From Acidobacteriota bacterium (lineage in GTDB: Bacteria; Acidobacteriota; Terriglobia; Bryobacterales; Bryobacteraceae), in NCBI GenBank assembly GCA_029776225.1, contig JAKOTR010000102.1, forward strand, positions 1 through 64,000: DNA of 64,000 nucleotides, written 5' to 3'. The translations under genes were made by a program, and so were the position numbers. Below are positions 24,274 to 26,298 of this stretch, piece after piece. The notes beneath the pieces are model-generated. The model was given only the letters and a program-made list of their open reading frames with translations. It did no database searches and had not been told where the DNA came from. How positions within the stretch are numbered: the first letter of the stretch is position 1; every line of letters begins with the position of its first letter.

Positions 24274-25316
24274 TCATAATCCCGTTTTGTGGCCGGTCAC
24301 CAAAACTTTCAATCCTTCAATCCGGGGAAGGCCGGTTCGCCATCTTGCCCACTTAAACCCAAGAGTCTCGATACCGATCCGCCGTAGTGCGCTCTGAAGG
24401 TTAGGGCTGATACCGTCGGGAGTTACAAGAATCAACCGCGATCGTGGGTTCACGTTTGCACTGTGTAAGAGAAGCTGTCCTACTGCCGAATAAATACTCT
24501 GCCTGTCCGCCGAGGGTTTCACCTCAAAGAGTGAAGTGACCTTCCTCCCGTGGTAGACGTAGAGATCCCGAAGCTTGTCTTTACCGGTTGAGTAGCCTCG
24601 ACTGCGAAGCAGTTTCCGCAACTTCTCAACGATTGGACCATGGTCGCAAACCGCATTCACTTCGCGGTTGATCCTGTAGGTCTTAATACCCTCGAACTCC
24701 TTTCCAAGGGATTTGAGCTCAAATCTTGCTGAACCGGTGTGGCCGCTTCTTCCGGTCGATTGCCCATCCGAAAGATCGCGCGCGGCCAGAGCTTTGATTC
24801 GCTCCACTTCATAAACGAAAAACTGGATCTGCCGAAGGAATCTTGGAGAGCCGATTTCGGCAACCGCGGCGACCTCTGTCTCTCGGTCGCCATCCCAGAC
24901 TGTCAGGCGCTTCCCGTCGTAATTTGACCAGAACAACTCGGAACCGATGTTCTTTCGTCCCCCGCCGATCCGGCCTCGATGAGCAAGAAGAGTGCGCCCC
25001 TGCTCGTCAACCACAGCAATTCCACCAACACGCCGGTTAATTCCATGAGAGGAAGGTTTATCTCACAGGTAATCGGAACGGAGCCACGGCTAGGGTCCTT
25101 CGTTCCGAACGCATTCCAGTAGCGGTTTCCGGAAGGACGCGGAAGTAGCAAGTCAGATACCGAAGTCTTCCAGTCACAGTACCCGGACGTCCACGTTCTT
25201 GCCCCGGAACCCCAGGTTCGCACGCACCAGTTTTGCCCATGGTTTCGAAAGGCCGTGATGATTTTTTCTCGCACCTGCTCGATTTCGGCCGCTCGCTCCA
25301 AGACTTGGTATGCCAT
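24274..25316 (-). pseudogene. PD-(D/E)XK nuclease-like protein, split by a frameshift
   Basis: The 5' part starts at ATG 25316 with AGGAGAG upstream and reads MAYQVLERAAEIEQVREK to PITCEINLPL. The 3' part, in another frame, reads GINRRVGGIAVVDEQGRT and continues to a stop at 24274. Joining them near 25043-25056 (one base added) gives about 347 residues. The last 130 residues have the PD-(D/E)XK pattern: an HGPIVEKLRKLL helix, then D in LRDLYVY, E-V-K in LFEVKPS, and a following helix with Q (SAVGQLLLH). I do not recognise the N-terminal domain. Base composition is visibly less GC-rich than the flanking genes, consistent with transfer. Confidence 0.65.
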
Positions 25317-25691: not shown

Positions 25692-25712
25692 TGGTGGTGA
25701 GGGTGGGATTCG
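25692..25712 (+). repeat. Partial duplicate of tRNA-Ser 3' end (candidate att site)
   Basis: Twenty of 21 bases match 26209-26229, the last 21 bases of the minus-strand tRNA-Ser gene including CCA, in the same orientation; 17 are continuous (GGTGAGGGTGGGATTCG). Integrative elements using tRNA genes leave such copies at their far end. Confidence 0.65.
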
Positions 25713-25867
25713 GAGTTTCGAAATCAGGTAACTTGCTAATTTTTCTTACCCGCCTGTTCCACCGATCCAACCCTCGCCACGGAGCGTTGCAACCAATTAC
25801 ACCCGAGGACCCTAGTCTGCACGGGGGCGACTGCTTGTTGGTTCGCCGGGCTTCGTGCCCCCTTCGG

Positions 25868-26104
25868 CTACTTTTCAAACAGAGCCTTTTTCATCTGCTT
25901 CACGATTCGATCGGCAACTTTACGCTGGCCGCCGCGTCGGAGTCCACCCCACCAGAGCGACCTGTCGCCAGCTTCACCTGCCCAGACCACCTGTTTGTCT
26001 TTCACGCTGATTAGCTGCACATTGCCTTCGTTCTTGTCCTTGCCGCCGAAGACAGAGTAGTACCACTTGTCATCGGCTTTGATCGAGGCTCCAGTCAAGG
26101 TCTA
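25868..26104 (-). pseudogene. 5'-truncated fragment of a small exported-type protein
   Basis: A frame of about 78 codons, with a stop (TAG) immediately upstream and only a TTG as possible start, reads IKADDKWYYSVFGGK, then NVQLISVKDKQVVWAGEAGD and RKVADRIVKQMKKALFEK. The sequence looks like the C-terminal half of a lipoprotein-type protein whose end has the 'VVWAGEAGD...GGQRKVADRIV' style; the family name is not known to me. The N-terminal part with its export signal is missing. It lies inside the 500-base segment bounded by the two tRNA-Ser-like sequences. Confidence 0.5.
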
Positions 26105-26208
26105 ATCTAATCAACTCAGATTGGATCCGTCTCGGCCCCCGCTTTTGGCGTGAAGCCCGGACTTCATGGCAAGCGTGGATGGCGCGGTCAATTGCCGGTG
26201 GGGCTGAC

Positions 26209-26298
26209 TGGCGGTGAGGGTGGGATTCGAACCCACGGACGGGTTGCCCCGTCAACGGTTTTCGAGACCGCCCGATTCAACCACTCTCGCACCTCACC
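26209..26298 (-). tRNA. tRNA-Ser (anticodon CGA)
   Basis: A 90-base class II tRNA with acceptor arms GGTGAGG/CCTCACC, anticodon loop CTCGAAA (anticodon CGA), a long variable arm (GTTGACGGGGCAACCCGTC region) and T loop GGTTCGAATCC. Discriminator G and CCA are encoded. A possible -10 (TATATT) lies at 26323-26328 on the minus strand. Its 3' end is partly duplicated at 25692-25712. Confidence 0.96.

What the first reader, a model, noticed from the sequence alone, without database searches (positions are those of the whole stretch)
24274..25316. Two-domain PD-(D/E)XK nuclease-like gene with an unrecognised N-terminal domain
The C-terminal part has D150, E164-x-K166 and Q180 (numbered in the 3' frame) in the order of PD-(D/E)XK nucleases. 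The N-terminal 180 residues match nothing I know. The gene sits alone among integrase and attachment remnants and has a lower GC than its neighbours, the usual setting for a defence or mobility gene.
Basis: partly seen in the sequence, partly recalled or inferred. Interest (0 to 1): 0.58.

Follow-up and report, generated by a model that had tools for sequence, protein, structure and literature searches.

The report
Decayed copy of undescribed defence-linked nuclease
A broken bacterial gene turns out to be the remnant of an undescribed two-part, probably DNA-cutting protein family; intact relatives often lie in or near phage-defence gene clusters, and one bacterial order has kept the protein after its cutting site was lost.

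Summary
The gene (24274-25316, minus strand) is a decayed copy: a frameshift-aware alignment gives up to four frameshifts and two in-frame stops, against none in ten of ten intact homologues. One frameshift, near 25046, survives every penalty.

Its family has no Pfam model, and only one weak PADLOC hit. The C-domain of a homologue is predicted to fold as a PD-(D/E)XK nuclease. The N-domain models confidently (pLDDT 94) but matched no solved fold (best Z 4.3).

23 distinct homologues keep D-E-K-Q. Of 20 whose neighbourhoods I looked at, 9 lie near recognised defence or DNA-modification genes: type I restriction operons, BREX, a MADS-like operon, argonaute-SIR2 and others. No background rate was measured.

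Unexpectedly, 45 of 80 genomes of one order (taken as Syntrophales) carry the gene. None of the 43 judgeable copies has the full catalytic set, and their N-domain is better conserved than their nuclease domain.

Most likely role of intact members: a sensor-plus-nuclease auxiliary effector in methylation-based phage defence (inferred). The window copy is a dead remnant near a tRNA-Ser attachment duplicate.

The parts
24274..25316 (-). decayed gene (pseudogene) of the two-domain family; up to four frameshifts (near 25235, 25134, 25046 and 24348) and two in-frame TGA stops
   Evidence: profile alignment allowing frameshifts; control at the same mild penalty with 0 events in 10 of 10 intact homologues; only the event near 25046 survives the strictest penalty
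25047..25310 (-). first part of the N-terminal domain, apparently split over two reading frames, with the conserved RYWNAFG and EINLP motifs
   Evidence: hmmsearch of the three frames, frame 2 E 2e-12; sub-profile hit to the other frame at 25159-25218, best of all six frames of the window but only E 0.11
24778..25046 (-). second part of the N-terminal domain (HRGRIGGG motif; end taken approximately at IKALAAR)
   Evidence: hmmsearch frame 1 E 1.4e-71 over profile 92-327; boundary from the N-only ORF of L059
24315..24645 (-). PD-(D/E)XK nuclease domain (start approximate); D150 codon 24565-24567, E164 24523-24525, K166 24517-24519, Q180 24475-24477
   Evidence: fold of homologue L025
25692..25712 (.). 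duplicate of the tRNA-Ser 3' end (attachment-site remnant), 95% identical over 21 bp
   Evidence: the repeat finder
26209..26298 (-). tRNA-Ser (CGA), the presumed integration target

Best explanation
The gene is a non-functional, decayed copy of an undescribed family of two-domain proteins: an N-terminal domain of about 180 residues with no recognised fold, and a C-terminal PD-(D/E)XK nuclease domain. Shown by computation: the decay, the family, the predicted nuclease fold, the conserved catalytic residues, and the location of some intact members in or near methylation-based defence operons. Inferred: the N-domain senses a feature of invading DNA or of a disturbed defence complex, and this releases metal-dependent DNA cutting by the C-domain. 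Intact members would thus be auxiliary or back-up effectors beside type I RM, BREX and MADS-like systems. The window copy probably arrived with an island at tRNA-Ser and has since decayed.
For: PD-(D/E)XK fold: AlphaFold2 of L025 (pLDDT 82.6); the top VIA rows are mostly proteins of this fold: Cdn1 Z 9.0, XisH 8.8, Can2-type nuclease 8.6, NucS 8.3, Card1 7.4, restriction enzymes such as BstEII 7.5 and BsaWI 7.4. Catalytic D-E-K-Q in 23 distinct homologues. Context: type I restriction subunit - family gene - methylase/specificity-type gene in two Flavobacteriaceae; PglX - 357 aa - PglZ - BrxL - family gene in Mesorhizobium; N6-methylase - S subunit - kinase - mad7 - mad8 - 139 aa - family gene in Hymenobacter; a gene matching methylase and helicase models directly upstream in a Burkholderiales MAG; Vsr and two C5-methylases in Roseomonas; argonaute, SIR2 and DNA methylase in Hymenobacter monticola. 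Modularity: N-only ORFs L055 and L059, C-domain with other N-termini in L063 and L069. Sporadic, centre genomes included: 3 of 392 in the window's phylum, 1 of 249 in the family of L025, 5 of 289 in the class of L045. Decay. Published framework of auxiliary PD-(D/E)XK effectors beside BREX: PMC12839542, section 35 read.
Against: No activity or phage test exists. 11 of the 20 neighbourhoods looked at show no clear defence gene (two of these hold only UvrD-like helicases), scans were partial, and no background rate was measured. No Foldseek hit reached E 0.001, and the VIA tool warns that best Z of 7 to 8 is common for models without a clear match; some unrelated chains (CpaE 6.5, a Rab GTPase 6.1) appear lower in the list. 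Profile comparison with known PD-(D/E)XK families is weak (hhalign probability 25% and 11%, P 7.5e-4 and 2.8e-3), though above five decoys. A profile search of PDB sequences gave only unrelated hits at E 0.11 or worse. Sensing by the N-domain is not tested. The fold was predicted for homologues, not for the window protein.
Confidence: 0.65

Rival explanations
1. The family is a divergent branch of Shedu (SduA): a stand-alone anti-phage nuclease whose N-terminal clamp senses DNA ends and frees the nuclease.
For: Same layout, variable N-terminal module plus C-terminal PD-(D/E)XK; Shedu N-domains are diverse and thought to set specificity (PMC12904381, passages); weak profile similarity to SduA_C, P 2.8e-3.
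Against: No SduA_C match at E up to 1 in the two window ORFs or seven intact homologues, and no Shedu model among PADLOC hits. The Card1 endonuclease profile scores slightly better than Shedu. Several members lie within multigene operons.
Confidence: 0.12
2. It is not a nuclease in function: the protein is a DNA- or ligand-binding regulator with a vestigial nuclease domain, as may be the case in Syntrophales.
For: 45 of 80 genomes of the order of L058 carry it; 0 of the 43 judgeable copies have D-E-K-Q; rows without the set lie on one side of a 100/99 branch; N-domain 57.5% against C-domain 39.2% mean identity there; an exporter-type permease lies just upstream in 19 of 43 loci.
Against: Outside that clade D, E, K and Q are retained in 23 distinct homologues across divergent sequences, and in 18 full-length ones N is not better conserved than C (26.0% against 30.8%).
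Confidence: 0.1
3. It is a mobility factor: a nuclease serving excision or integration of the island.
For: Attachment duplicate beside it; recombinases near some homologues (L006, L045 and L063); XisH among the best fold matches.
Against: No constant association with one recombinase was seen; the best-placed copies are inside restriction or BREX operons; the widespread copies of the Syntrophales order do not fit.
Confidence: 0.08
4. The window gene is intact in life and only looks broken through assembly errors or programmed frameshifting.
For: It is from a 115-contig draft assembly; at the strictest penalty only one frameshift remains.
Against: Up to four shifts and two stops in about 1 kb, against 0 in 10 intact homologues. 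The two other genomes of the genus gave no match, so no close copy was at hand to compare.
Confidence: 0.05

Closest known systems
Card1 / Can2 / Cdn1 (CRISPR ancillary nucleases, Card1_endonuc PF09002)
   Same: C-terminal PD-(D/E)XK domain; among the best structural matches (Z 7.4-9.0); one homologue (L011) matches a PADLOC CARF-PDDEXK model at E 1.4e-4
   Different: no PF09002 match; N-domain matched no solved chain above Z 4.3; no CRISPR genes seen beside the members in what I looked at
Shedu (SduA, SduA_C PF14082)
   Same: variable N-terminal module plus C-terminal PD-(D/E)XK nuclease; Shedu has been linked to BREX (PMC12839542)
   Different: no SduA_C match; profile comparison weak (P 2.8e-3)
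Auxiliary PD-(D/E)XK effectors of BREX and BREX-related systems (PMC12839542)
   Same: PD-(D/E)XK protein encoded next to core genes of a methylation-based system (L052)
   Different: the section read names HARE-HTH, CR-ATPase, SF2-helicase and Shedu fusions, not this N-domain; its supplementary data could not be looked at here
MADS (methylation-associated defence system)
   Same: one homologue (L008) is the last gene of an operon with matches to mad2, mad5, mad6, mad7 and mad8 models
   Different: for the methylase and the kinase other models (type II methylase, PglW) score better; the family protein itself matches no mad model and occurs with other systems too

Membership tests
PD-(D/E)XK nuclease superfamily | core alpha-beta fold of restriction-type nucleases | tested here: met
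   C-terminal 140 residues of homologue L025; VIA Z 7-9 mostly to proteins of this fold; Foldseek alone stays above E 0.001
PD-(D/E)XK nuclease superfamily | conserved D ... E-x-K catalytic residues | tested here: met
   window and 23 distinct homologues; 0 of 43 judgeable copies of the Syntrophales order have the full set
PD-(D/E)XK nuclease superfamily | metal-dependent DNA cleavage | not testable with these tools
   needs biochemistry
Shedu (SduA) | SduA_C domain (PF14082) | tested here: not met
   no match at E up to 1 in two window ORFs and seven intact homologues; hhalign P 2.8e-3 only
Shedu (SduA) | variable N-terminal module with C-terminal nuclease | tested here: met
   other N-termini on the C-domain (L063, L069) and N-only ORFs
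Card1/Can2 | Card1_endonuc domain (PF09002) | tested here: not met
   no Pfam match; weak PADLOC hit of one homologue; hhalign P 7.5e-4
Card1/Can2 | N-terminal CARF domain | tested here: inconclusive
   N-domain model matched no solved chain above Z 4.3; absence from the list is not exclusion
Type IV (modification-dependent) restriction | modified-base reading domain fused to a nuclease | tested here: inconclusive
   N-domain has no Pfam match and no clear PDB match
BREX or MADS core component | present as a constant gene of the system | tested here: not met
   one BREX and one MADS-like operon recognised among 20 neighbourhoods looked at; other copies lie in other contexts

The most novel reading that the evidence does not exclude
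The N-domain is a new fold that reads a phage- or damage-linked signal shared by unrelated methylation-based systems (type I RM, BREX, MADS). It therefore plugs the same back-up nuclease into all of them. In Syntrophales the sensor was domesticated once, the nuclease died, and the protein now senses or regulates, often in an exporter operon.
Probability: 0.28. Interest if true: 0.78.

Novelty: new variant of a known kind. Interest (0 to 1): 0.52.

Why it matters
Pfam (two window ORFs and seven homologues) had no model for this family and PADLOC only one weak hit, yet members recur in or near several methylation-based defence systems. An unrecognised N-domain shared between them would point to a common trigger, which can be tested. 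The Syntrophales clade looks like a clean natural case of a defence-type protein kept after its catalytic site was lost, with sensor and nuclease domains under visibly different constraint.

Tried and rejected
Filing it as Shedu or Card1 was considered and rejected: no SduA_C or Card1_endonuc match, only weak profile similarity. In the VIA list for the whole homologue no Shedu chain appeared among the 50 rows shown; this does not exclude it. NCBIfam was tried on the window ORFs only; PHROGs was not searched.

Phage origin was looked for and not found: no match in phages, and none in viral contigs by two single-protein scans. The first genome-contig scan with the joined protein found nothing; the second, with an alignment, gave 45 loci.

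An empty insertion site was sought and not found: in the two other genomes of the genus the tRNA-Ser matches but nothing else clear within about 1.5 kb on either side, and four family-level relatives share only the ThuA gene in the 6 kb compared.

Reading the N-terminus as one intact frame was given up. The idea that all copies of the Syntrophales order sit behind an exporter was given up: an ABC-2-type permease lies within 600 nt upstream in 19 of 43 loci with more than 500 nt upstream; by my count of that listing eight more have one within 5 kb. HlyD, ABC, ABC-2 and TetR are names from reading the sequences, not from a profile search.

Literature: searches gave no description of this family in the listings; one search searched six protein accessions and found no paper. 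This shows only that these searches of this library found none.

Full report
What is there. Two minus-strand ORFs, 24903-25316 and 24274-25014, make up the gene. D150, E164-x-K166 and Q180 of the 3' ORF are present. By itself such a pattern is not rare: 8 of 107 long stop-to-stop frames in this window contain one. The gene is GC-poor, 54.3% against 62.6%. A 21-bp copy of the tRNA-Ser 3' end lies about 0.4 kb away at 25692-25712. The integrase remnant was not confirmed.

The copy is broken. A profile-to-DNA alignment that permits frameshifts at a cost finds four frameshifts and two in-frame TGA codons at the mildest penalty, two frameshifts at the middle one, and one (near 25046) at the strictest. 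Ten intact homologues that I picked, each left out of the profile (three of them with their closest relatives), gave no event at the mildest penalty (10 of 10). The piece carrying the two stops is the best match in all six frames of the window to its part of the profile, but only at E 0.11, so its details are less sure than the break near 25046. The window genome has one copy. Of 60 relatives searched by DNA, three gave matches, of 26-49 bases only.

The family. The window ORFs matched nothing in PADLOC or NCBIfam and in Pfam only SAP at E 0.13, below cut-off. Seven intact homologues had no Pfam match at E up to 1; in PADLOC only L011 matched, a CARF-PDDEXK model at E 1.4e-4. PHROGs was not searched. 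Homologues came from plasmids of Bosea, Hymenobacter, Azospirillum, Polaromonas, Microvirga, Roseomonas and Rhizobium and from 45 genome loci. Of 108 aligned rows, 27 have D-E-K-Q: the window, three duplicates (L071-L073) and 23 distinct homologues (list). Five of the 23 (L061, L063, L066, L069, L079) are left out of the 18-row identity comparison, as they are cut short, lack part of the N-domain or have another N-terminus. L064 (second copy on the contig of L063), L031 and L080 were dropped before the count.

Fold. AlphaFold2 of the Flavobacteriaceae homologue L025 (pLDDT 82.6) matched PD-(D/E)XK proteins over residues of about 195-335. No Foldseek hit reached E 0.001 (best 2e-3, a repair endonuclease); VIA gave Z up to 9.0, with nucleases of this fold filling most of the top rows and a few unrelated chains (CpaE 6.5, a Rab GTPase 6.1) lower down; the tool warns that best Z of 7-8 is common. 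The matching order of secondary structure, the register of D, E-x-K and Q, and the consistent identity of the top rows make the assignment firm in my view. The N-domain was modelled alone on the N-only ORF L059 (pLDDT 94.0, pTM 0.90). Foldseek found no PDB hit below E 0.14 and VIA none above Z 4.3. That is consistent with a new fold but does not prove one. Comparison of L025 with viral models gave no E below 0.001, and a profile search of PDB sequences only unrelated hits at E 0.11 or worse.

Neighbours of D-E-K-Q members. Of the 23, I looked at 20 neighbourhoods (L076, L078 and L079 were short loci). Nine show a recognised defence or DNA-modification gene in the stretch: L024 and L025 (between a type I restriction gene and a methylase-plus-specificity gene; the latter name rests on tallies and on reading the sequence), L052 (directly after BrxL), L008 (end of a MADS-like operon), L065 (after a gene matching methylase and helicase models), L056 (HsdS 3.6 kb away), L068 (Vsr next to it, two C5-methylases), L007 (argonaute, SIR2, methylase) and L067 (reverse transcriptase, TIR, Abi). 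L011 and L063 have UvrD-like helicases only. In the other nine I recognised none; those scans were partial: plasmid annotation names, or tallies of 93 of the 105 listed neighbours that show only the first 25 families, and ten single proteins. No background rate was computed, so the association is suggestive, not measured.

The Syntrophales branch. 45 of 80 genomes of the order of L058's genome carry the gene. The tool names no order; Syntrophales is taken from the titles of identical loci (Syntrophus, Smithella, Syntrophaceae). Elsewhere it is rare, centre genomes included: 3 of 392 in the window's phylum, 1 of 249 in the family of L025 (the centre itself) and 5 of 289 in the class of L045. 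Of the 45, 43 can be judged and none has the full D-E-K-Q set: 20 lack both E and K, 18 lack K, 5 lack E. L121 runs off its contig and L119 lacks that part. In a tree of 96 rows the rows without the set form one side of a branch with support 100/99. These 73 rows include duplicates, one contig from the window's phylum (L002) that may be mis-binned, and a long-branch row (L077). After dropping duplicates and outliers, 63 rows show N-domain identity 57.5% against 39.2% for the C-domain, with N above C in 99% of 1953 pairs; in 18 active rows the order is reversed, 26.0% against 30.8%. An ABC-2-type permease lies within 600 nt upstream in 19 of 43 loci. The window row falls among the active rows (99/84), but its end branch is long (1.34) and its exact place unsure.

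Relation to known families. The active C-domain profile (21 rows) aligned with Card1 endonuclease (probability 25%, P 7.5e-4) and SduA_C (11%, P 2.8e-3), with D and E-x-K in register; five shuffled decoys gave P 0.11 or worse. So it shares the superfamily but is filed in neither family. The layout resembles Shedu, whose N-terminal clamp binds DNA ends (PMC12904381, passages only). The idea of auxiliary PD-(D/E)XK effectors beside BREX is published (PMC12839542: outline with abstract, and section 35 read). StySA BREX (PMC9009780, passages) gave nothing on this family.

Mechanism. Shown by computation: domain layout, predicted fold of homologues, conserved catalytic residues, operon placement of some members, modular forms (N-only ORFs L055 and L059, other N-termini in L063 and L069; the N-only ORFs may themselves be truncations). 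Inferred: sensing by the N-domain, DNA cutting, and a back-up role. The window copy is read as a remnant that no longer does any of this.

Noticed in passing
25692-26229: A stretch of about 0.5 kb bracketed by the two tRNA-Ser 3'-end copies (spacing 517) holds a 76-aa minus-strand ORF (25868-26098) with no Pfam match; perhaps the remnant of a very small element.
   Followed up: partly
L055:7827-8360 and L059:3884-4441: N-domain-only ORFs (Lindowbacteria and Alicyclobacillus MAGs); by eye no nuclease domain in any forward frame within about 900 nt downstream. They may be real single-domain proteins or truncated remnants.
   Followed up: partly
L063 and L064 (contig NZ_PEIB01000027.1): Veronia nyctiphanis has two copies of the C-domain with a different N-terminus on one contig.
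   Followed up: no
L002 (G211:C233): A contig of a genome of the window's phylum whose copy sits deep inside the Syntrophales clade (branch 0.034); perhaps mis-binned or recently transferred.
   Followed up: no
L152:2684-18867: Hymenobacter plasmid operon: N6-methylase, S subunit, PglW/mad6-like kinase, mad7, mad8, a 139-aa protein and the family gene; looks like a MADS variant.
   Followed up: partly
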